Of a stretch of 64,000 nt of DNA, positions 615 through 60,851 are shown piece after piece. Every line of letters begins with the position of its first letter. Position 1 is the first letter of the stretch. The stretch comes from Erysipelothrix sp. HDW6C (lineage in GTDB: Bacteria; Bacillota_I; Bacilli_A; Erysipelotrichales; Erysipelotrichaceae), in the NCBI RefSeq assembly GCF_011299615.1, contig NZ_CP049861.1, forward strand, positions 124,001 to 188,000, read 5' to 3'. A program made the position numbers and the translations under genes. The notes below the pieces were generated by a model. The model made no database searches. It was not told the DNA's origin and saw nothing but the letters and a program-made list of their open reading frames with translations.

Positions 615-2584
615 TAAAGTTCAGCTTTCATTTCTAAAATCACATCACGAAGTTGTGCAGCTCTTTCAAAATCAAGAATCGCTGCTGCTTCACGCATTTC
701 TTTTTCAAGACGTTCCACCAATTCTTGGATTGATTTCTTGTCTCGTTTTCCACCACGAACTTTCTTTGTGAGTTCAGCAGTTTCTTTTCCAGCAATCACA
801 TCGCGAATTTCTTTGCGAATTGTTGTTGGTGTGACGCCATGTTCGATATTGTAGGCAATTTGCAGATCACGACGGCGCTTGGTTTCTTCCAATGTACGCT
901 TCATAGAATCTGTCATCCGATCCGCGTACATGATGACATGGCCATTCGAGTTACGCGCAGCACGCCCAACAATTTGTACGAGCGAGCGGTATGAACGCAA
1001 GAAACCTTCTTTGTCGGCATCAAGAATAGTGATCAAACTTACTTCCGGTAAGTCCAACCCCTCCCGTAACAAGTTAATTCCTACAACAACGTCGTATTTA
1101 CCCAAACGAAGATCACGCAATATTTCGATACGTTCAAGTGTCTTTGTTTCATGGTGTAAGTAAGCGACTTTGATTCCTGTTTCCAGCAGGTAACTGGTGA
1201 GGTCTTCCGCCATTTTAACGGTCAGTGTCGTAATTAACACACGCTCATCTCGCTCACGACGCTCGAGAATTTGATCCACGATATCATCCACCTGTCCGCG
1301 ACTTGGCTTCACTTCTATTGTTGGATCTAAAAGACCTGTTGGACGGATAATTTGCTCAACAATTTTATTATCAACACGTTCAAGCTCATAATCACCCGGT
1401 GTCGCCGAAACATAGATGGTCTGATTCTGAACGGTTGTAAACTCGTCAAACGTCATTGGGCGGTTGTTCATTGCACTTGGAAGTCGGAATCCAAACTCAA
1501 CGAGTGTTCTTTTCCGTGATTGATCACCGTTGTACATACCGCGAATTTGCGGCAAGGATACATGGGACTCATCAACAATAAACAAGTAATCGTCAGGGAA
1601 GTAGTCAAAGAGTGTAAATGGTCTTTGTTCTGGGGGACGACCATCAATATGCATTGAGTAGTTTTCAACACCCGAACACATTCCAAATTCACGAAGGGCT
1701 TCAAGATCATACTCCGTACGCGCCTTCAGACGTTGATACTCAACGAGTTTATCCTCTTTTTTAAAGTATTCCAAACGTTCTTTCAGTTCTTCTTCAATAC
1801 TATCTGCCGCTTTGCGGATCTGGACCATATCCCGTGCATATGAATTTGCAGGGAAGATATCATAGACGCGATACCCTTGTTTGATGGTTCCGGTAATACG
1901 ATCCACCTCAACAATACGATCAATTTCATCACCAAAGAACTCAATACGAACAACAAAGTCATCCGTATCCCCAGGGACAATTTCAATCACATCGCCTCGA
2001 ACTCGAAACGTTCCGCGCATCTGCTCGTAGTCATTACGAACATATTGTCGTTTTACAAGATCCATCATGAGTTCTTCTCGGCTGATTTCCTGACCCACGC
2101 GCATGACATAAAGCATCGCTTTATAGTATTCAGGATCCGCTGTAGCATAAATACTCGCTACAGATGCGACAATAATGGTGTCACGACGTTGCAAGACTGA
2201 GTTTTGTGCTGCATGACGCAACATATCCAGTTCCTGATTGATCATCGAGCTTTTTTCGATATATGTGTCACTTCCCGGTAAGTACGCCTCGGGTTGATAG
2301 TAATCAAAGTTCGATACAAAGTACTCTACCCGATTATTTGGAAAGAACTCTTTGAACTCCGAATAAAGCTGCCCTGCAAGTGTTTTGTTGTGAACAAATA
2401 CAAGGGTTGGTCGGTTGAGTTTTGCAATGACCTGCGAAACGGTAAAAGTTTTACCGGTACCTGTGGCTCCCAGTAAAACTTGTTCCTTCTTTCCTGACTC
2501 AATCCCTTCCATCAATTCCTTGATGGCACGTATTTGATCCCCTTTTGGTTCAAACTTTGAAACCAACTCAAATTTATCGGTCAT
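614..2584 (-). CDS. uvrB: Excinuclease ABC subunit B
   Basis: UvrB is the damage-verifying helicase-like subunit of nucleotide excision repair; it takes damaged DNA from UvrA and recruits UvrC. The 656 residues have the family's usual length. Visible are Walker A GATGTGKT (39-46), the beta-hairpin region with DYYQPEAY (around 94-101), Walker B DESH (338-341), helicase motifs ending in QIVGRAARN, and a C-terminal UVR coiled domain (about 620-655) that contacts UvrC. The start overlaps the stop of the upstream S41 protease gene by 4 bp (ATGA), with GAGGTGAT as ribosome binding site, so the two are cotranscribed. uvrA is not in the window. Confidence 0.98.
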
Positions 2585-4071
2585 TTTTTAATCACCTCTA
2601 TTGCTTTGTGTAATTGAACATCGCGTGCATCACGATTCAATGCCCAATCAGCATAAACAGAACTGTAGATTTGTTTCATGACTGTCTCAGTTATTTGTCC
2701 ATCACCTGGCAATCCTACGATTGCAGCATATTGATTGAACGCATTCAACGTTGCTTGATCATAATAGCCATCAGTACGGCCACTGTGGAACCCTAGATAA
2801 GTCAATCCATCTTGTACATAAGCAACACTTGCGTGCACACTATCCGGTCCAATTGATTCACCTTCTTCAAGTTTCACATAGGTTTGATAGAAAATAGCTG
2901 GAAGTTTACTCTCAGTCATTGGAACAATTCCGGTGCCATTGATACTTTCACCGGTTGGCCCGAGCCATTCTGCAATCGTAATTTTTAGCGCACCTTTATC
3001 ACCGTAAGTAATTTGTGTTTGCACAGTTCCTTTACCATAGGATTTCACTCCGACAGTTTCAGCACCCAAATTATCTCGAAGTGCCAACGTTAGAACCTCC
3101 GATGCACTCGCTGAGTTTTCATTTACCAAAATAACAATCTTATCAAATTTATACTCATCTGCAACGGATTTACTTACCGTATAAACTTCAATCGTTCCAT
3201 CGGTAAATTTCTCTTGATAGACGACATCACCATTTTGTAAGAAAAGGCGGGCGATGCTTTGAATGGCATCCAAATAACCACCACCATTATTTCGTAAATC
3301 AATGATCAACTTATCTGCATTTTGTGCCTTGAAATCTTTGAAGTAAGATTCTGTAACTTCGCCTAATTGGCGGCCAAAAGATTTAATTTCTAAGTATGCG
3401 ACACCATCATCAAGCATGTGGCCTGATGCAAGCGCATTTACAGTGCCACGAACCATCGTAATACTGATTGGTTTTTGATCTCTTAAAACTTCAATCGTCA
3501 CTTCAGTTCCTTCTTCGCCAATGATACGATCTTTTACCGGTGTATCCCCTTCACTCAACAATACACCGTCGACTTTATTTATAATATCGCCTGCTTGTAC
3601 TCCTGCTTTTTCAGCGGGTGAATTCTTGAACACATCCGTTATAATATTTACGTTTTCACCTTCATAGAACTGAACACCAATCCCAACAAATGACATATTG
3701 ATGGACTCTTCAAGTCCCAACATTTCTTCGGGTGTCATAAACGATGTATGACGATCACCATTTGCTTCCAACATACCTTTTATTGCATTGTTGGTAAGCT
3801 CGGTATCTGGATCTTCCATTTCATTTGTGAAATACCATTTGTTACGAATATCATTAAATACGCGTTCAAAAATGCCTTGATTCTTTGAACCATTGCCTAC
3901 GATACTGTTGTCTTTAAATAGTGATGAGACTCCAATACCACCTAAAAACGAGATAACAACTGCGACGACAATTGCAGCTGCAAGTTTGTTCTTTTTCTTA
4001 CGTGATGCTATTTCATCAGGCCAAACATGTCGCTCAAGTTTGACTTGTACTTTTCCATTTTCTTTATCCAC
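2581..4071 (-). CDS. S41 family C-terminal processing peptidase (CtpA/CtpB type) with PG-binding domain
   Basis: This is a membrane-anchored serine protease acting outside the membrane on proteins with exposed C-termini. It has a basic cytoplasmic N-terminus, one transmembrane segment (about 30-51), a PDZ domain (about 120-200), the S41 catalytic domain (about 205-390) and a peptidoglycan_binding_1-like tail (about 415-475). The catalytic pair is likely Ser322 in SASASE and Lys347 in SYGKGT, 25 residues apart as in CtpB. The start is GTG with GAGGTGG upstream. It is the first gene of a two-gene operon with uvrB, an arrangement without obvious functional logic. A CtpB-like sporulation role is unlikely to be inferable here. 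Confidence 0.93.
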
Positions 4072-4758: not shown

Positions 4759-4762
4759 CATA

Positions 4763-4790
4763 AAGCCTCATTTCAAATGAAATGAGGCTT
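4763..4790. terminator. Convergent (bidirectional) terminator hairpin
   Basis: A perfect 12-bp stem (4763-4774 and 4779-4790) with loop AAAT separates the convergent LOG and M23 genes. The T-tract is modest on both sides. Confidence 0.7.
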
Positions 4791-4795
4791 TCGTA

Positions 4796-6166
4796 TTATT
4801 GTAGATAATCGTTTGGATTCAGACGACAAGGAATTGCACCACCGCGAGCATCGCATGTTGATGATGTACCACCAGACGATCCACCCAATCCAAATTGGGC
4901 CGTTCGCTGACTGCTATTCCATCGTTCAAGAGCTGCTGATACCGAGTCATCACCCAAGTAAAATATTTCAACATGGGCATGGGCACCATATGAATTTCCT
5001 GAGTTTCCGACTGAGCCAATTTGTGCACCTTGATCCACAATTGATCCAGGACCTGCTAAGAATGAACCTTGAGCCATATGGCCAATCAGTGTTCCATAAA
5101 TGGTTCCACCAACTTCAAAAATCATCGCCATATGATTCCCCAATCCACCATTACATCCCCAACTGCCATTGGTTGAACACCCACCATCAGCAACGACCAC
5201 GATTCCGTTACCCATTGCATAGATTGGTGTTCCTACGCCAGCTGGAAGGTCAGCACCAAGGTGAACACCGCCACCATATGATCCTGAGTAATGCCATACT
5301 GACTCACCAATTTGTGAACCAGGAACTGGATTCATAAATGAACCTGATGCTACAATTGCGCTCGCAGCTGCTTCATCAACAGCAATCTGTTCTTTGATTG
5401 CTGCATCTTGTGTTTCTAAATTAACTTTTTGAATCACAAGCTGTTCTTGCAATTGCTGTGCGGCAACTTTTACAAGTTCAGTATTTGCTTTCTCTGCTTC
5501 AATAAGAATCTTATTATCTTCAATAGCATCTTTTTCAGCAACGACTAAATCTTGATCTGTTTGTAACTTTTCACGTTCTACACGTAAATCTTCAATGAGA
5601 CCTTCATTATAGCGTTTAATGTTATTCATACCTTCGATACGACGCACAATGTCGGCAAAATCTGTAGCACCCATGACAAATTCAATATAGCCATTGACGC
5701 GCATCGTCGATTGAGAATTGACCATAAACGCCTTGACTTGATCTTCAATGCCCTTAATCGTACCTTCGCGTTCCTTGATTTGTACTTCAAGTTCAGCAAT
5801 TGCAGTTTCTTTGTTGGCAATATCGAGTTCAAATTGCGCAATATTTGCCTCAAACTCAGCAATCATATTGGTATAGTCTTGAATACGACCCAAGTTGGAA
5901 ACAATATCACTTTTTATCTTCTCCAAGTCCCCAGCAAGTTCATTGGCAAGATCCTTATTGTTGCTTGCACGATCAATCAAAAATTGACGATAATCAGCAC
6001 ATATTTGTTTGTTCTCTTCATCAATTCTTCCACGACACATTGTTTCATATTTGGCAGGATTCGCCTCAAAATCTGCTGCAGTGTCTGCAAAGATTGGCGC
6101 AAGAATCCCTAGTAACATGAACAAAATCACCGATATTATAATAGCACTTTTAAATGTTTTCTTCAT
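4796..6166 (-). CDS. PcsB/EnvC-like coiled-coil M23 peptidase (second copy in the ftsEX operon)
   Basis: This is a secreted wall hydrolase of about 456 residues: signal peptide (1-28, ending LAPIFA), long coiled coils (about 70-270) including the PcsB-type hairpin segment STMRVNGYIEFVMGATDF, and a C-terminal M23/LytM domain. All zinc and catalytic positions are present: His302 and Asp306 (HLGAD), His363, and His396/His398 (HAH). Unlike EnvC it therefore looks catalytically competent. Cysteines come in pairs (44/56, 330/338, 438/447), suggesting disulfides. I chose ATG at 6166 because AGAGGT lies just upstream. It follows a paralogue by 18 bp, at the end of ftsE-ftsX-M23-M23. It is probably activated by FtsEX to cleave septal peptidoglycan. 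Confidence 0.88.
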   Translation of the reverse strand: MKKTFKSAIIISVILFMLLGILAPIFADTAADFEANPAKYETMCRGRIDEENKQICADYRQFLIDRASNNKDLANELAGDLEKIKSDIVSNLGRIQDYTNMIAEFEANIAQFELDIANKETAIAELEVQIKEREGTIKGIEDQVKAFMVNSQSTMRVNGYIEFVMGATDFADIVRRIEGMNNIKRYNEGLIEDLRVEREKLQTDQDLVVAEKDAIEDNKILIEAEKANTELVKVAAQQLQEQLVIQKVNLETQDAAIKEQIAVDEAAASAIVASGSFMNPVPGSQIGESVWHYSGSYGGGVHLGADLPAGVGTPIYAMGNGIVVVADGGCSTNGSWGCNGGLGNHMAMIFEVGGTIYGTLIGHMAQGSFLAGPGSIVDQGAQIGSVGNSGNSYGAHAHVEIFYLGDDSVSAALERWNSSQRTAQFGLGGSSGGTSSTCDARGGAIPCRLNPNDYLQ

Positions 6167-6184
6167 AGAATGACCTCTCAAAAT

Positions 6185-7633
6185 CTAGTGTACATGGCTT
6201 TCTGGATTAACCCGACACGGAATTGCATCACCCTTGTTTGAACAGAGGGAACTCTTGCCACCTGACGATCCACCCAATCCGAACTGAGCTGTTCTTTGAC
6301 TGCTATTCCATCGCTCCAAGGCACCTGGGAGTCCACCATCAGTAGTATTATTTTTACCTAAGTAGAATACTTCAACATGAGCATGCGCACCATACGAAGC
6401 GCCTGAGTTTCCGACTTGACCGACCTGTTGTCCTGGTCGAATTCGTGAACCCGCACCGACTGTAAAGCTATCTTGAGCCATATGCATGATGAGCGATCCG
6501 TAGATATTCCCATCACCACCTACATAGATTGTAGCCATATGATTTCCCAAGCCACCATTACAGTTGAAACTTCCATTGGTTGAACAACCACCGGTCGCAA
6601 CCACAACGATACCATCCCCCATCGCATGAATTGGAGTACCAATTCCTGTAGCCATATCACTGCCGAGATGGGTTCCGCCCCACGTGTAATCCCAAACTGT
6701 TTCAGTAAGTCTTGCACCGAAGACTGGAATAGAAGTCACGCCATTTCCAGGATTCGTAGGTGTTTCGCCACCTTCTTCACCCGGTTCGGGTTCTGGGTCT
6801 GGCGGTGGTGTAAAGTCAACAATGTCTTGCGGTGACAAAACATTGGCGCTAATTTCTGCTTCAATTTTAGCATCCGCTACATCAAGGAGTCCTTGTTGTT
6901 CTTTCAGTTCACTATAGATTGTTTGCAATCCCGCTTCATACAGCTTTGCTTTTTCACCTTGCGCTTCAATTTCAACTTTAGCATTTTCAATGTCAAATTT
7001 TTCAGCAGCTACAAGATTTTGATCTTCAACTAGTTTTTCACGCTCAGTCCGTAAATCTGAAATGACTGTTTCGTTATAGCGTTTAATAGCATTCATCCCA
7101 TCAATACGACGGATAATATCCGCAAAATCACGGGCACCCATGATAAACTCAATATATCCGTTAACACGCATTGTTGATTGTGAATTAACCATATACGTTT
7201 TAACATCTTCTTCAAGGACTTTGATGCTTTCCATACGTTCTGCAACAAGACCTTCGAGACGTTCAATTTCTATTTCCTTTGCATCAATTTGTGCTTGCAA
7301 ATTTGCAGCCTCGTCTTCAAAGGATTTAATCTTTGCTACATACTCATCAATCAGGTTTAAATTGTTCGCTAGATCGCTTTCAATGGATTTACGTTGCGCA
7401 GCAAGATCTTCTTTCTCAGCACTTTGATCGGCAATTTTCCGATTAAGATACTCACGATATGCCTTGCATGTTTCCACGGTATCGGCAGTACTGACACCAC
7501 GGCACAACTCATTGTAATACGCTTCATTACTTGCAAACTCAGCATCGCTGATTGCTCCAATTGGAGAAGTCACAGCCAAAAAAAGCACTGTGACGAGTAA
7601 AAGTTTAAATGTACTTTGAAAGCGATGTCTCAT
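6185..7633 (-). CDS. PcsB/EnvC-like coiled-coil M23 peptidase (first copy, overlapping ftsX)
   Basis: This paralogue of the following gene has about 482 residues: signal peptide (1-27), coiled coils (about 65-265) with the same STMRVNGYIEFIMGARDF hairpin, a proline/glutamate-rich linker (about 276-297) that the other copy lacks, and an M23 domain with His322, Asp326, His384, His417 and His419 intact. The ATG at 7633 overlaps the ftsX stop as ATGA and has GAGGTGG upstream, so I prefer it to the GTG at 7642. Translational coupling to ftsX strongly suggests it is the extracellular partner of FtsEX, as PcsB is in streptococci and CwlO in Bacillus, but with an M23 rather than a CHAP or NlpC/P60 catalytic domain. 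Confidence 0.9.
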   Translation of the reverse strand: MRHRFQSTFKLLLVTVLFLAVTSPIGAISDAEFASNEAYYNELCRGVSTADTVETCKAYREYLNRKIADQSAEKEDLAAQRKSIESDLANNLNLIDEYVAKIKSFEDEAANLQAQIDAKEIEIERLEGLVAERMESIKVLEEDVKTYMVNSQSTMRVNGYIEFIMGARDFADIIRRIDGMNAIKRYNETVISDLRTEREKLVEDQNLVAAEKFDIENAKVEIEAQGEKAKLYEAGLQTIYSELKEQQGLLDVADAKIEAEISANVLSPQDIVDFTPPPDPEPEPGEEGGETPTNPGNGVTSIPVFGARLTETVWDYTWGGTHLGSDMATGIGTPIHAMGDGIVVVATGGCSTNGSFNCNGGLGNHMATIYVGGDGNIYGSLIMHMAQDSFTVGAGSRIRPGQQVGQVGNSGASYGAHAHVEVFYLGKNNTTDGGLPGALERWNSSQRTAQFGLGGSSGGKSSLCSNKGDAIPCRVNPESHVH

Positions 7634-8535
7634 CGTGTCCACCTCAAGAATTTCCCAACTGATAGAAGACTCCCAATTGATCCGACGACTGCACCAATCA
7701 GCGCGAGCACGCCTGATATTTGGTATACAAGCGGTGTAACCGCAACGAGTGAAAACATTTTAGAGTATAAGTAACCCCCTGTTGAATCAAAGAGATACTT
7801 ATAGCCAAAGATTGTAACTAAAATTGGAATTAATGCTCCAAGCAAACCGATAATCATACCTTCAATAATGAACGGCCAACGAATATACCAGTTGGTAGCT
7901 CCTACTGTTCTCATAATGCTAATTTCACGGCGACGCGAGTGAATTGATACTCGAATTGTATTCGAAATCAAGAACACAGCAATGACACCCAATGCAGCGA
8001 CGATAAAGAACCCAACATTTCTGATTTGTTCCAATCCACTTACGAATTGTGATGTTGCATCACCACCATAGGTTGATTTCTCAACGCCTTCAATAGTAGC
8101 AATGGCTGCGGAGACCGTTTTTAGATTCTCACCTGTATCAGCAGAAACTAAGAAGGCATCCAACATTGGATTGTTTTCTCCACGGAATGATCCAAACATT
8201 TGTTCAGCATCATCCGCATCATTCAATGCAATGTAAGCTTCTAATTCATCAGCTTTTGATGAAAATGTTACCGAAGTGACATGGGGTAAAGCACGGATTG
8301 CCGCCTCTATTTTATCTGTCTTTTCTTGTCCTTCAAATTCTTTTTTAACTTGAACGTGAATTTGAACATTTGATTCCATTTGTTCTGTAATCTGCATTAT
8401 GTTAGCACTTAATAATAGGAACAACGCCATAATTAGTAATGTTACAGTAACAGAAGAAATACTCGAAAGTGAGAGCGCAAAATGACGCACAACACCGAGG
8501 AAACCTTCTTTAAAATGTCGTAAAACTCTACTCAT
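7630..8535 (-). CDS. ftsX: Cell division ABC transporter permease FtsX
   Basis: FtsX is the membrane half of FtsEX, which couples cytoplasmic ATP hydrolysis to activation of wall hydrolases at the septum. The 301-residue protein has a cytoplasmic N-terminus, a first transmembrane segment (about 20-42), a large extracellular loop (about 45-165) that would bind the hydrolase, and three C-terminal transmembrane segments with the typical SIHSRRREISIMRTVGAT loop. The ATG at 8535 follows a GGAGGG site inside ftsE and overlaps the ftsE end by 8 bp; a longer reading to 8592 would lie deep in ftsE and is unlikely. Confidence 0.96.
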   Translation of the reverse strand: MSRVLRHFKEGFLGVVRHFALSLSSISSVTVTLLIMALFLLLSANIMQITEQMESNVQIHVQVKKEFEGQEKTDKIEAAIRALPHVTSVTFSSKADELEAYIALNDADDAEQMFGSFRGENNPMLDAFLVSADTGENLKTVSAAIATIEGVEKSTYGGDATSQFVSGLEQIRNVGFFIVAALGVIAVFLISNTIRVSIHSRRREISIMRTVGATNWYIRWPFIIEGMIIGLLGALIPILVTIFGYKYLFDSTGGYLYSKMFSLVAVTPLVYQISGVLALIGAVVGSIGSLLSVGKFLRWTR

Positions 8536-9217
8536 GATTGATATACCCTCCCGAAGCGAGATCGGCAACAATATGACCAGCATCCAATGCAATTGTCCGC
8601 TTCTTATTGTTATTTACAATATCGACATCATGTGTAACCATCAACACTGTTGTATCTTCTTCTTTATTAATACGTTCTAATAATTTAATAATTTCATTTG
8701 ATTTTTCAGGATCTAAGTTTCCGGTTGGCTCATCAGCAATGAGCACCTGTGGCTTGTTCGCAATTGCTCGAGCGATGGCCACACGTTGTTGCTGTCCGCC
8801 ACTCAATTCTTGTGGGTAAGCATTTGCTTTCTCACTCAAATCAACAAGACGCAACACTTCGCGAACACGAGAACGCAATTTTACGGTCGGCGTGTTAACA
8901 ACTTCTAATGCAAACGCGATATTTTCGAAGACTGTCTTTCGCTCCAAAAGTTTGAAATCTTGAAAAACAACTCCGATGTTACGACGGTAAATCGGAACCT
9001 TGGAGTGACGCAATTTTCCAACGTTAAAATCTCCAACATTAACACTTCCTGTCGATGGTATTTCTTCACCATCCAAGAGCTTAATTAATGTTGATTTCCC
9101 CGACCCTGTAGGACCGATGATATATACGAATTCCCCCTGTTCTACAGCAAGGTTGACATCGTAAAGTGCATTGACGCCATTTTTATATTGTTTTGAAACG
9201 CCTTTAAGTAGTAGCAT
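8528..9217 (-). CDS. ftsE: Cell division ATP-binding protein FtsE
   Basis: This ABC ATPase partner of FtsX has 229 residues. Walker A is GPTGSGKST (about 35-43), followed by a Q-loop in VVFQDFKLLE, the signature LSGGQQQR, Walker B VLIADEP and the switch histidine in VTHD. It is the first gene of the four-gene operon. AAAGGAG precedes the ATG by a rather long 12-13 nt. Confidence 0.97.
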   Translation of the reverse strand: MLLLKGVSKQYKNGVNALYDVNLAVEQGEFVYIIGPTGSGKSTLIKLLDGEEIPSTGSVNVGDFNVGKLRHSKVPIYRRNIGVVFQDFKLLERKTVFENIAFALEVVNTPTVKLRSRVREVLRLVDLSEKANAYPQELSGGQQQRVAIARAIANKPQVLIADEPTGNLDPEKSNEIIKLLERINKEEDTTVLMVTHDVDIVNNNKKRTIALDAGHIVADLASGGYINHE

Positions 9218-57019: not shown

Positions 57020-57740
57020 GCCAATGCCCTCCCTTTACAATTTCATACTGCTTTCCAGCAACAATCTTAATGTCATTTTCACCAATATGAGTTCGTACTG
57101 TATCGATCGCCAACGCTTCAGTATTTGCCTGTTCGCTTAAGTGGGCAAGAAATATTGACTTTGTTTGATCACCAATAATTCGTGACAGTAAAATACCCGC
57201 ATCATCATTCGATAAGTGACCCACATCTGAGAGAATGCGACGTTTGATCGCATAAGGTCTGTTTGTTCCCATTAGTATTTCAGGGTCGTGATTGCTTTCC
57301 ATAATATAATAATCTGCATCATGAATCAGTGGTAAATCTTGATCGCGAATGTATCCCGTATCTGTGATATACACCAATTTTTCCTCACCATAGCGAATGA
57401 CATATCCAACAGAGTAGGCATCGTCATGAGATGTCTTGATGGGTAGAATGTGAAAGTCCCCAATCATGAAGTCCTCATAAGGTTGTACTTGATAAACATC
57501 CTCGATTGGTGAAGGACAATATATGGGTGATGAACGAAAGTGCTTTAGCTGACTTGTATGATCGGAGTGGTCATGGGTAATTAAAACCGCATCCACATCC
57601 GAAAAATCTTTACCCAATGCCATAAAACTTTGAGTCAGGTAGCGTTTTGTTGTGCCACAATCGATTAAGAGCAATTGATTGCCTGCTTCAATAAGACACG
57701 CATTACCCTTCGATCCGCTTGCAAGGAGCGCATATTTCAT
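57009..57740 (-). CDS. walJ: WalJ/YycJ metallo-beta-lactamase fold hydrolase
   Basis: The 243-residue protein has the SGSKGN start and metal motif THDHSDH, then further ligands in TDTGYI and DVGHLSND. WalJ family members are DNA-processing or housekeeping nucleases linked to the Wal operon and division. The ATG at 57740 shares a base with the stop of the G5/M23 gene upstream, so the genes are translationally coupled. Confidence 0.93.
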   Translation of the reverse strand: MKYALLASGSKGNACLIEAGNQLLLIDCGTTKRYLTQSFMALGKDFSDVDAVLITHDHSDHTSQLKHFRSSPIYCPSPIEDVYQVQPYEDFMIGDFHILPIKTSHDDAYSVGYVIRYGEEKLVYITDTGYIRDQDLPLIHDADYYIMESNHDPEILMGTNRPYAIKRRILSDVGHLSNDDAGILLSRIIGDQTKSIFLAHLSEQANTEALAIDTVRTHIGENDIKIVAGKQYEIVKGGHWHEE

Positions 57741-59275
57741 TAACATGATAACTGCGAACACGGATTAATCCGTGATCCCCCTGTCCAAATTTCAAAGTGC
57801 AAGTGCGCACCATAACTTCGACCGGTATTTCCAATGTAGCCTATTTCTTCACCTTGGGCAACTACGTCACCAACGTTGACATATGGTGTTGAAGCCATAT
57901 GTGCATAACGTGTTTGGAAACCATTTCCATGATCAATCACAACATGATTCCCCCATTCACTACCACAGCTGAAGTTTCCTTCAAAGCATCCACCAACTGA
58001 GGTCACAACAACACCACGGTCTGCGGCTAGAATTGGACCTAAACCACCGTTACCATAATAAACAAAGTCTGTTCCATTATGATTTGCATAACATGAATCA
58101 CCATATGCACAACTGATAAACCCATTCCCAATCGGAATCCGGAATTCTCCACTACCAATACGTGGTTCAATCTTAGTCCCATAGCGTATGACTGCGCGAA
58201 TGGGTTCTTTTTGAACAACAGAACGAATTTCGTTAGATGTAAGTGATTCAGTGTTTACGGATATATCTTGATAGGTGACATCACGTGATCCATTTTGTTG
58301 GACAACATCAACAACTTCAACACCCTCTTTTAACTCAGGATCTTCTTGATAGATAGGTTCATCGGGATAGACAGTTTCTTGAACCTTACGCTCACGTGTA
58401 ACCAAAACAGTCAAAGGTGAACTAAATTTACTTACTTTGAGTGTAGTCCCTGGCTCGAGTATCTGATCACGGCTACTCAACTTATCCCGATTAACGGAAA
58501 CAAGTTGAGAACCTGTCATCCCACTTTTCCAACCAATTCCGTCAACTGTATCGTAGGGTTCAACTTCATAGGTTTCAATTTTGGGATCATAACCGTAGCT
58601 TAAGAATTGTTGAATTTCTGCTTCCGTATTTAAAATCTTATCTTTCGAAGCAAATCCACGTGTTCGTGTAATACTCTCTTTAACTTCGAGATTGGTCTCC
58701 CGTTGGCCGTATTCCGTAAGTGGCGGAATAGGGTTTTTCGCTTTAAGATTCTCGTAAACCTCTGGAGTTGATACAAAGTTCATCGTGAAATCATCACGTG
58801 CACGATCAAAATCTTCGAGATTCTTCACATAAATAATTGCACCATTTGAGAACTCAATTTTATTGGTTTCAACAGCAAAGAGTTTCTCTTCATAGATATA
58901 ATTGAATATGTCATCATCACGGTCTTCGTATGTGTTATAACTCATTTCTTTAACTTCATAAATATCTTCAATAAAACCCAATTTTGAGCCCGCAAACTCT
59001 TGCTTGTACTCGCGCTCATAAACCTCATCAAACAGATCGCTCAAACGATTCTTATCATGCACGATAGCAATGAGCTTGTCTTCACGATACAATTTCGTGA
59101 TTTCTATAGGTTGTTCACTAACAGTTTCCACACGTTGCGGAAACATTGCGGTCGATGTATCGACCTTTTCAAATGCAGATACGACACTCTTCGAAGTCTT
59201 GTTACCTTGAATGAGGACGCCCAATAATATACTTATAAATATCGCCCCCACGATAACTTGAATATTTCGCTTCAA
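57740..59275 (-). CDS. G5 domain-containing M23 peptidase (copy 2, next to walJ)
   Basis: The 511-residue protein has an N-terminal signal anchor (about 5-24), an unassigned region (about 35-215), a LysM-like segment (about 235-285), a G5 domain (about 290-375) and an M23 domain with HNGTD, HMA and HLHFE metal and catalytic residues. It would be a membrane-tethered endopeptidase acting on peptidoglycan. It overlaps walJ by one base and follows its paralogue by 28 bp. Confidence 0.92.
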   Translation of the reverse strand: MKRNIQVIVGAIFISILLGVLIQGNKTSKSVVSAFEKVDTSTAMFPQRVETVSEQPIEITKLYREDKLIAIVHDKNRLSDLFDEVYEREYKQEFAGSKLGFIEDIYEVKEMSYNTYEDRDDDIFNYIYEEKLFAVETNKIEFSNGAIIYVKNLEDFDRARDDFTMNFVSTPEVYENLKAKNPIPPLTEYGQRETNLEVKESITRTRGFASKDKILNTEAEIQQFLSYGYDPKIETYEVEPYDTVDGIGWKSGMTGSQLVSVNRDKLSSRDQILEPGTTLKVSKFSSPLTVLVTRERKVQETVYPDEPIYQEDPELKEGVEVVDVVQQNGSRDVTYQDISVNTESLTSNEIRSVVQKEPIRAVIRYGTKIEPRIGSGEFRIPIGNGFISCAYGDSCYANHNGTDFVYYGNGGLGPILAADRGVVVTSVGGCFEGNFSCGSEWGNHVVIDHGNGFQTRYAHMASTPYVNVGDVVAQGEEIGYIGNTGRSYGAHLHFEIWTGGSRINPCSQLSC

Positions 59276-59303
59276 AGAAAATCTCCTTCATAATTTTTAG
59301 TGT

Positions 59304-60851
59304 TTAACAGGGAATAAATCCATTACATGCGTTGAGCCTGCTTCCGGAAGAATCCCATATCTCAAGATGTAAGTGGGGTGTAGTTGCATAACCCGTTTGG
59401 CCGACTTCACCAATATTTTCACCCGCCGAGACCGATGCTCCAACGCCGACATATGCTGGGAAAGGCATGTGGGCATACAGTGATTGATATCCGTTTCCGT
59501 GGTTAATGCGGACCCAATAGCCCCATCCACCAGCATCATATCCACCACCATCTACAACACCCGATCCAATTGCATAAATCGGACCATAGATTTCGTAGGG
59601 TTGAAGATCAACACCACGGTGTCCACCATAGCAACCATAACCACAAATTACACTACCACCATTCAGTGGCCATCTGAATCCTCCAGGACCCGCAGCACCA
59701 CCACCGGGGCCACCTTGTGAACCACCACCTGGGGTAACAACTTCTTCTTCTTTTGTACCAACTTTAACGACACCACGCACAGGTTCAACTGTTTGTTTGC
59801 GACCTGTTTCTGTAGCATCTTTTTGTGTACCATTAACATAGACAATGTTGTAGGTTACGTCCGCCATTCCTGGCTTCTCAACAACCTCAACAACCTCAGT
59901 ACCGACATCAAGTTCATCGTCATCGATGTACTCAATATCCTCAGGATAAACAGGCTCCGATGTCTTTAACTCCCGTGTTACTGTTACTGTAAATGGTGAA
60001 TTAAATTTCGAGACATTGAGTTGTGTTCCCACTTCAAGAATTTGATCGACATCCGTGATAATATCACGATTGATTGATGCAATTTGTGTTCCTGACATTC
60101 CATTTTGTGCACCAACACCGTCTACGGTATCATACTGCTTTACAGTATAAGTCTCTAACTTTGGCTCATATCCATAGTTTAGGAACGTTAATATTTCTTG
60201 TTCGTCTTTTAGAATCTTATCTTTTGATGCAAGACTTTTTTCGATTTTAACTGTTTCTTTGACTTCAAGACTCAGGTCACGCGTACCATTTGTAACTAAG
60301 GCAGGTGGAACCTCGCGGTTCTTAAATAATTCGTATGATGCCGGTGAGATAAAGTTCTTAATGAATACCTCACGTGCAGCATTAAAATCTTCGACATCTT
60401 GGACATAAATAACCGCATTATTCGAGAATGTTACTTTACTTACTTCAATCGCAAAAAGATTCTTCTCGTGAATATAGTTGAAGATTTCTGCATCGCGATC
60501 TTCATAAATATTGTAACTCAACTCTTTTGTTTGGAATATATCATCGATAAACCCTAATTTTGAATCTGGAAAATCAGCTTTATATTCCGTTTCATAAATC
60601 GAATCGAACATGGTCTCCAAACCTTTTTCGTCGTGAATAATTCCAACGAGTTTGTCTTCATGATAAAGCTTGGTCACTTCTACGGGATGATCACTTACAG
60701 ATGCTACTTCTTGAGGATAGACAGCATTGGATGTGTCAATGACTTTCATGGCTGCTTCAACATTTCTTTTTTGTGTTGATTGATGGGTCAAGTAACCCAA
60801 TCCGACACTTAGAAGAATCGCAATACCAATGATTTTCATATTTTTACTCAT
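59304..60851 (-). CDS. G5 domain-containing M23 peptidase (copy 1, next to dnaB)
   Basis: The 515-residue paralogue has the same architecture: signal anchor (about 5-23), unassigned region, LysM-like part, G5 domain (about 290-375), a Gly/Pro-rich linker (TPGGGSQGGPGGGAAGPGG) absent in the other copy, and an M23 domain with HRGVD, HMP and HLHLE. AGGTGAT lies 6 nt before the ATG. It follows dnaB by 10 bp. Confidence 0.92.
   Translation of the reverse strand: MSKNMKIIGIAILLSVGLGYLTHQSTQKRNVEAAMKVIDTSNAVYPQEVASVSDHPVEVTKLYHEDKLVGIIHDEKGLETMFDSIYETEYKADFPDSKLGFIDDIFQTKELSYNIYEDRDAEIFNYIHEKNLFAIEVSKVTFSNNAVIYVQDVEDFNAAREVFIKNFISPASYELFKNREVPPALVTNGTRDLSLEVKETVKIEKSLASKDKILKDEQEILTFLNYGYEPKLETYTVKQYDTVDGVGAQNGMSGTQIASINRDIITDVDQILEVGTQLNVSKFNSPFTVTVTRELKTSEPVYPEDIEYIDDDELDVGTEVVEVVEKPGMADVTYNIVYVNGTQKDATETGRKQTVEPVRGVVKVGTKEEEVVTPGGGSQGGPGGGAAGPGGFRWPLNGGSVICGYGCYGGHRGVDLQPYEIYGPIYAIGSGVVDGGGYDAGGWGYWVRINHGNGYQSLYAHMPFPAYVGVGASVSAGENIGEVGQTGYATTPHLHLEIWDSSGSRLNACNGFIPC

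What the first reader, a model, noticed from the sequence alone, without database searches (positions are those of the whole stretch)
4796..9217. ftsE-ftsX operon carries two tandem, apparently active PcsB/EnvC-like M23 peptidases
The partners of FtsEX in model bacteria are a CHAP protein (PcsB), an NlpC/P60 protein (CwlO) or an inactive LytM activator (EnvC). Here two coiled-coil proteins with PcsB-like hairpin segments, each with a full set of M23 residues, follow ftsX, the first overlapping it by ATGA. The copies differ mainly by a Pro/Glu linker and share paired cysteines. This suggests two FtsEX-gated endopeptidases rather than one, possibly for two division or elongation sites. Motifs are seen; activity and FtsX contact are inferred.
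Basis: partly seen in the sequence, partly recalled or inferred. Interest (0 to 1): 0.72.

Follow-up and report, generated by a model that had tools for sequence, protein, structure and literature searches.

The report
Paired short- and long-tether FtsEX wall-cutters
An Erysipelothrix bacterium makes two sister cell-wall-cutting enzymes next to the FtsEX cell-division switch that normally controls a single partner, and wherever I found such pairs in this order of bacteria one enzyme sits on a short tether and the other on a longer one, which hints at two working ranges under one switch.

Summary
On the minus strand, ftsE, ftsX and two genes encoding coiled-coil plus M23 proteins lie head to tail and end at a terminator. 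Both proteins have Pfam CC_PcsB and M23 domains above cut-off and all five M23 catalytic residues. The M23-type partner is not special to this window: it is the norm across Erysipelotrichaceae (52 of 57 surveyed ftsX loci outside Erysipelothrix have exactly one). The tandem pair is the unusual part. At ftsX it occurs in 8 of 12 Erysipelothrix genomes and arose by repeated duplication. Copies A and B are 81% identical over the predicted FtsX-contact hairpin but 36% over the rest of the coil, so both probably dock on the same FtsX. Because EnvC binds FtsX 1:2, they would compete for one slot. New here: in every pair one copy keeps the ancestral coil-to-active-site spacing and the other has an expanded low-complexity tether, which arose independently at least twice in Erysipelothrix. 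The same short/long split appears in NlpC/P60 and CHAP partner pairs of relatives. Best reading: two FtsEX-gated M23 endopeptidases differing in reach or gating. Activity, FtsX binding and the role of the tether are inferred. New variant of a known kind.

The parts
8528..9217 (-). ftsE, ATPase of the FtsEX complex
   Evidence: NCBIfam TIGR02673 271.8 bits, over cut-off
7630..8535 (-). ftsX, permease-like protein with extracellular domain
   Evidence: NCBIfam NF038347 330.7 bits; Pfam FtsX_ECD 54.9 bits
6185..7633 (-). copy A: signal peptide, coiled coil, long Pro/Glu tether, M23 domain (482 aa); ATG overlaps the ftsX stop (ATGA)
   Evidence: Pfam CC_PcsB and Peptidase_M23 over gathering score; junction
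4796..6166 (-). copy B: signal peptide, coiled coil, short tether, M23 domain (456 aa); ATG with GAGAGG site 18 nt after the stop of A
   Evidence: Pfam CC_PcsB and Peptidase_M23 over gathering score; junction
6824..7477 (-). copy A antiparallel coiled-coil hairpin, residues 53-270
   Evidence: AlphaFold2 helices 53-155 and 170-269; ungapped profile match to PcsB 4cgk
5357..6010 (-). copy B antiparallel coiled-coil hairpin, residues 53-270
   Evidence: AlphaFold2 helices 53-155 and 170-270
7070..7213 (-). copy A predicted FtsX-contact hairpin, residues 141-188
   Evidence: maps to PcsB 101-114 and 130-148, predicted FtsX sites (PMC7668044); 81% identical to B against 36% for the rest of the coil
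5603..5746 (-). copy B predicted FtsX-contact hairpin, residues 141-188
   Evidence: as for copy A
6728..6823 (-). copy A long Pro/Glu-rich tether, residues 271-302
   Evidence: coil end (A262) to first zinc His: 60 residues in A, 40 in B, family median 46; pLDDT under 50 at 273-298
6344..6727 (-). copy A M23 domain, residues 303-430 (H322, D326, H384, H417, H419)
4952..5329 (-). copy B M23 domain, residues 280-405 (H302, D306, H363, H396, H398)
4762..4791 (.). bidirectional terminator-like hairpin that closes the operon (and the convergent LOG-like gene)
   Evidence: 13-pair stem, reported on both strands
2581..4071 (-). S41 (CtpA-like) peptidase gene: conserved downstream neighbour of ftsEX-M23 in the family
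   Evidence: Pfam Peptidase_S41, PDZ; synteny

Best explanation
This is an FtsEX-controlled peptidoglycan hydrolase module in which the usual single coiled-coil partner has been duplicated. FtsE binds and hydrolyses ATP; FtsX passes the movement through the membrane and grips the hairpin tip of the partner's coiled coil. That frees or positions the M23 domain at the far end of the coil, which then cuts peptide cross-links of the wall. Both copies keep the FtsX-contact hairpin and the zinc site, so both probably dock on the same FtsX and cut. Since one EnvC binds two FtsX domains (PMC7668044), A and B would occupy alternative FtsEX complexes, not one shared complex. They differ in the segment between coil and catalytic domain: B keeps the ancestral short spacing, and A has a longer flexible Pro/Glu tether. 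That segment lies where EnvC has its restraining arm and PcsB its alanine-rich helix, so the difference most likely gives A a longer reach into the wall, looser autoinhibition, or both. Shown here: genes, domains, catalytic motifs, operon layout, selection in relatives, distribution, repeated duplication and repeated tether expansion. Inferred: enzyme activity, FtsX binding, one-at-a-time docking and the role of the tether.
For: Operon layout: ATGA overlap, 18-nt gap, terminator after B. CC_PcsB and M23 in both copies. Catalytic HDHHH in both and in all homologues. AlphaFold models show about 100-residue paired helices, a tip helix and an M23 fold. Foldseek ranks FtsEX-bound EnvC 8tzl_E (E about 4e-11) and 6tpi_A first over 373-418 columns, and PcsB 4cgk also matches B. 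The profile aligns to PcsB over 201 residues without a gap. The FtsX-contact hairpin is 62-81% identical within the pairs against 28-44% for the rest of the coil. dN/dS is 0.02-0.06 for both copies between related species. The genome has no NlpC/P60 protein and one CHAP protein, so it has no CwlO-type partner. Synteny yitT-ftsE-ftsX-M23-S41-uvrB is conserved in the family. Tether split: 8 of 8 Erysipelothrix pairs have one short (40-49) and one long (60-103) copy, against 48 of 52 family single copies within 41-51. A single origin of the long copies is rejected, p-AU 1e-57. The same split occurs in NlpC and CHAP pairs.
Against: There is no direct evidence of FtsX binding or hydrolysis. The model pTM is 0.43-0.44, so the placement of the domains is not reliable and autoinhibition cannot be judged. 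Genomic adjacency does not prove that B is used by FtsEX; dispersed extra copies far from ftsX in relatives (L058-L061) show that such proteins can also live elsewhere. In the window's own genome A's tether is only about 20 residues longer than B's. The short/long rule was noticed after looking at the data, and the cut between short and long was set afterwards.
Confidence: 0.72

Rival explanations
1. Redundant dosage pair: B (or A) is simply a spare copy that does the same job; tether length drifts because one copy is under weaker constraint there.
For: Repeated duplication and loss in the genus; three Erysipelothrix genomes manage with a single short-tether copy; low-complexity linkers expand easily (own knowledge).
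Against: Coil shafts are only 36% identical in this genome, so the pair is old; both copies are under strong purifying selection in relatives; one copy always keeps the ancestral spacing while the other is expanded, in independent lineages.
Confidence: 0.2
2. Only one copy is the FtsEX partner; the other is a secreted M23 autolysin that no longer needs FtsEX.
For: Related CC+M23 proteins are encoded far from ftsX in E. tonsillarum-type genomes, E. anatis and E. inopinata; FtsEX can hold only one partner at a time by the EnvC stoichiometry (PMC7668044).
Against: The predicted FtsX-contact hairpin is the best conserved part of the coil in both copies of every pair; both sit in the operon.
Confidence: 0.15
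3. EnvC-like activators: the M23 domains recruit and activate an amidase and do not cut the wall themselves.
For: Best full-length structural matches are EnvC proteins; one Amidase_3 protein exists in the genome.
Against: EnvC lacks the zinc residues (PMC11627006), whereas all five catalytic residues are invariant here in 37 and 52 homologues.
Confidence: 0.07

Closest known systems
EnvC of FtsEX-EnvC-AmiA/B (E. coli, V. cholerae; 6tpi, 8tzl)
   Same: Antiparallel coiled-coil hairpin that binds FtsX, followed by an M23/LytM-fold domain; best full-length structural match of both copies.
   Different: EnvC has a degenerate zinc site and activates amidases; here the catalytic residues are intact. 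EnvC has a restraining arm; here that place is a flexible tether of variable length. One EnvC, two partners here.
PcsB of Streptococcus (CHAP; 4cgk)
   Same: Pfam CC_PcsB hairpin; ungapped coil alignment over 201 residues; a hydrolase tied directly to FtsEX.
   Different: Catalytic domain is CHAP, not M23; one gene, not a tandem pair.
CwlO (B. subtilis) and RipC (mycobacteria), NlpC/P60 partners
   Same: Secreted coiled-coil hydrolases described as working with FtsEX (PMC7668044).
   Different: NlpC/P60 catalytic domain; the window's genome has no NlpC/P60 protein at all.
Fusobacterium nucleatum EnvC (PMC5915739)
   Same: M23-type protein annotated 'membrane-bound metallopeptidase', encoded next to ftsX and co-precipitated with FtsX; deletion gives filaments.
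   Different: Gram-negative cell, single copy, catalytic state not discussed in the text.
SpM23_A of Staphylococcus pettenkoferi (PMC8498115)
   Same: M23 hydrolase encoded close to an ABC transporter with similarity to FtsEX.
   Different: Only a suggested link; no coiled coil is mentioned in the text and there is no tandem pair.

Membership tests
FtsEX coiled-coil hydrolase partner (PcsB/EnvC/CwlO/RipC kind) | gene linked to ftsE-ftsX | tested here: met
   Overlap and 18-nt gap; synteny across the family. Linkage holds here; it is not universal for the kind.
FtsEX coiled-coil hydrolase partner (PcsB/EnvC/CwlO/RipC kind) | N-terminal coiled-coil hairpin of the PcsB/EnvC type | tested here: met
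   CC_PcsB over gathering score in both; profile matches to 4cgk, 6tpi, 8hd0; models
FtsEX coiled-coil hydrolase partner (PcsB/EnvC/CwlO/RipC kind) | direct binding to the FtsX extracellular domain | not testable with these tools
FtsEX coiled-coil hydrolase partner (PcsB/EnvC/CwlO/RipC kind) | catalytic domain held inactive until FtsEX acts | not testable with these tools
   pTM 0.43-0.44; domain placement undefined
Peptidase family M23 (LytM/lysostaphin type) | HxxxD, a separate catalytic His, and HxH | tested here: met
   A: H322, D326, H384, H417, H419; B: H302, D306, H363, H396, H398; invariant
Peptidase family M23 (LytM/lysostaphin type) | peptidoglycan endopeptidase activity | not testable with these tools
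   needs an enzyme assay
EnvC-type amidase activator | degenerate, zinc-less LytM domain | tested here: not met
   all zinc and catalytic residues intact; EnvC degeneracy per PMC11627006
PcsB proper | C-terminal CHAP domain; NCBIfam NF046104 cut-off 450 bits | tested here: not met
   17.0 and 26.5 bits; M23 instead of CHAP

The most novel reading that the evidence does not exclude
FtsEX of Erysipelotrichales repeatedly evolves a two-enzyme partner set, one on a short and one on a long tether, independently in M23, CHAP and NlpC/P60 partners, so that a single ABC-transporter gate drives hydrolysis at two ranges or two gating strengths in the wall.
Probability: 0.3. Interest if true: 0.66.

Novelty: new variant of a known kind. 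Interest (0 to 1): 0.52.

Why it matters
FtsEX is usually described with one partner hydrolase, and how its movement is turned into controlled wall cutting is still open. A genus in which one FtsEX has two near-twin partners that differ mainly in coil shaft and tether gives a natural experiment on what the region between coil and enzyme does. The region of difference is the place of the EnvC restraining arm and the PcsB alanine-rich helix, so swapping tethers between A and B would directly test reach against autoinhibition. The survey also shows the catalytic domain being exchanged (M23, CHAP, NlpC/P60) on the same coil within one order of bacteria.

Tried and rejected
The first related-loci scan with copy A alone found no confirmed relative; an alignment query gave 37 named loci. 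A phylum-wide FtsX_ECD survey drew mostly small genomes without a match and was little use for comparison beyond the order. Literature searches for FtsEX with Erysipelothrix, for a short/long partner pair, and for Erysipelothrix peptidoglycan type gave nothing usable. Considered and rejected: that the tandem is a misassembly (it recurs in independent genomes); that one copy is a pseudogene (intact motifs, low dN/dS in relatives); that all long-tether copies share one origin (p-AU 1e-57). Whether E. inopinata copy B belongs with the window's A lineage stays open (p-AU 0.06). Domain-wise trees hint that the M23 domains of A and B in this genome may have been homogenised (65% to each other against 51-56% to the E. 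anatis copies), but the tree is unresolved. No restraining-arm helix could be identified in the models, but their confidence there is low, so its absence is not claimed.

Full report
WHAT IS THERE. The window lies in a 2.36-Mb single-contig genome of the genus Erysipelothrix (named relatives E. sp. HDW6A, E. aquatica, E. anatis, E. inopinata, E. urinaevulpis, E. tonsillarum). On the minus strand ftsE (8528-9217), ftsX (7630-8535), copy A (6185-7633) and copy B (4796-6166) follow each other. The ftsX stop and the A start overlap as ATGA, and 18 nt separate A from B; both have ribosome-site-like sequence. A 13-pair terminator-like hairpin at 4762-4791 closes the unit. Pfam finds CC_PcsB and Peptidase_M23 in both copies above the gathering score; FtsE and FtsX pass their NCBIfam cut-offs.

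CATALYTIC STATE. The five M23 residues (A: H322, D326, H384, H417, H419; B: H302, D306, H363, H396, H398) are intact and invariant across 37 homologues and in all 52 family proteins aligned. This separates the proteins from EnvC, whose LytM domain lacks zinc residues (PMC11627006). Six cysteines (A: 44, 56, 350, 358, 464, 473) recur through the family, with 350/358 lost in about a quarter, so they are a family trait and not a feature of the pair.

ARCHITECTURE. AlphaFold models of A and B (pLDDT 76 and 79, pTM 0.43 and 0.44) give a signal helix, helix 53-155, a short tip helix, a return helix 170-270, and an M23 fold. Foldseek's first two matches for both are EnvC solved with FtsEX or with the FtsX domain (8tzl_E, 6tpi_A; 373-418 columns), followed by LytM, ShyA and lysostaphin; PcsB 4cgk also matches B. 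VIA-align gives Z 16 for 8tzl_E over 312 residues (rmsd 24, so the domains are not superposed as one body) and Z 14-17 for many M23 domains. A profile of the coils aligns to PcsB residues 26-226 without a gap. By that alignment the FtsX-binding residues predicted for PcsB (101-114 and 130-148; PMC7668044) fall on A residues 141-154 and 170-188.

DO BOTH COPIES DOCK ON FTSX? Over residues 141-188, A and B are 39/48 identical (81%), against 57/158 (36%) for the rest of the coil and 65% for the M23 domain. The same excess is seen in all eight Erysipelothrix pairs (62-81% against 28-44%). In relatives both copies show dN/dS of 0.02-0.06. I infer that both bind the same FtsX. Because EnvC binds FtsX 1:2 (PMC7668044), two partners would exclude each other on one FtsEX complex.

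HOW COMMON IS IT? In Erysipelotrichaceae outside the genus, 57 ftsX loci show yitT-ftsE-ftsX-(partner)-S41-uvrB as the usual order, with exactly one M23-type partner in 52 (one of them cut by a contig end), one CHAP partner in one, two CHAP partners in one, and none adjacent in three; none has two M23 genes, though some contigs end close by. In Erysipelothrix, 8 of 12 genomes with ftsX have two M23 genes there, three have one, and one contig ends after the first. So an active M23 partner is the ordinary state of the family, and the pair is the genus's own. The genome holds no NlpC/P60 protein and one CHAP protein. The sister family mostly uses CC_PcsB proteins with NlpC/P60 domains, and one of its genomes has two of them in tandem after ftsX (L110). 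Several other genera duplicate ftsEX or ftsX around a single M23 gene.

HISTORY OF THE PAIR. Trees put the E. tonsillarum-type A and B together (their own duplication), E. inopinata A with them and E. inopinata B with the window-type clade, and the window's A and B with the A and B of E. anatis and E. aquatica. Duplication and loss have therefore happened repeatedly.

THE TETHER PATTERN. From coil end (A262) to the first zinc His, 48 of 52 family proteins have 41-51 residues (median 46). In every Erysipelothrix pair one copy lies at 40-49 and the other at 60-103, with unlike low-complexity inserts: Pro/Glu in A here and in E. anatis, Gly/Ser in E. tonsillarum-type B, GGNDN repeats in E. inopinata B. 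A single origin of the long copies is rejected (p-AU 1e-57). Taking single copies as the null (4 of 59 long), exactly one long copy in each of two or three independent pairs has a chance of about 0.016 or 0.002; this was computed after the pattern was seen. The NlpC pairs of the sister family and the CHAP pair of G243 show the same split (49-72 against 78 and more; 57 against 87), with at least four changes of state forced by that tree. The tether lies where EnvC has its restraining arm and PcsB its alanine-rich helix (PMC7668044), so it could set reach, gating or both. Established: the length pattern. Inferred: what it does. Most of the sister-family pairs are not next to ftsX in the data fetched, so their link to FtsEX is weaker.

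VERDICT. Its interpretation is right that there are probably two FtsEX-gated M23 enzymes, but the M23 partner as such is ordinary in the family, and 'two sites' has no support. The more interesting fact is the recurrent short/long pair. New variant of a known kind.

Noticed in passing
window 57740-60851 (-): A second tandem pair of M23 proteins (both with a G5 domain, one also LysM) sits between dnaB and a walJ-like metallo-beta-lactamase gene, htrA and rlmH, a place where many Bacillota carry walRK-yycHI (own knowledge). No protein reaches the WalK cut-off in this genome (best 208.6 of 725 bits).
   Followed up: partly
L107:4540-9402 (G243) and L101:6250-9535 (G111): An Erysipelotrichaceae genus with two consecutive ftsX genes followed by CHAP-type PcsB-like partners (two in G243, one in G111), in place of M23.
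   Followed up: partly
L062, L064, L092, L095, L114; L063, L088, L122, L125: Other Erysipelotrichaceae genera duplicate the transporter, not the hydrolase: ftsE-ftsX-M23-ftsE-ftsX, or ftsX-M23-ftsX.
   Followed up: partly
L058:4198-8104 and L061: E. tonsillarum-type genomes carry two further CC_PcsB+M23 genes far from ftsX, on either side of a gene that looks like a metal-binding lipoprotein; both have short tethers.
   Followed up: partly
L195 (G086): Sister-family genome with two tandem NlpC/P60 partners directly after ftsX, tether distances 121 and 56.
   Followed up: partly
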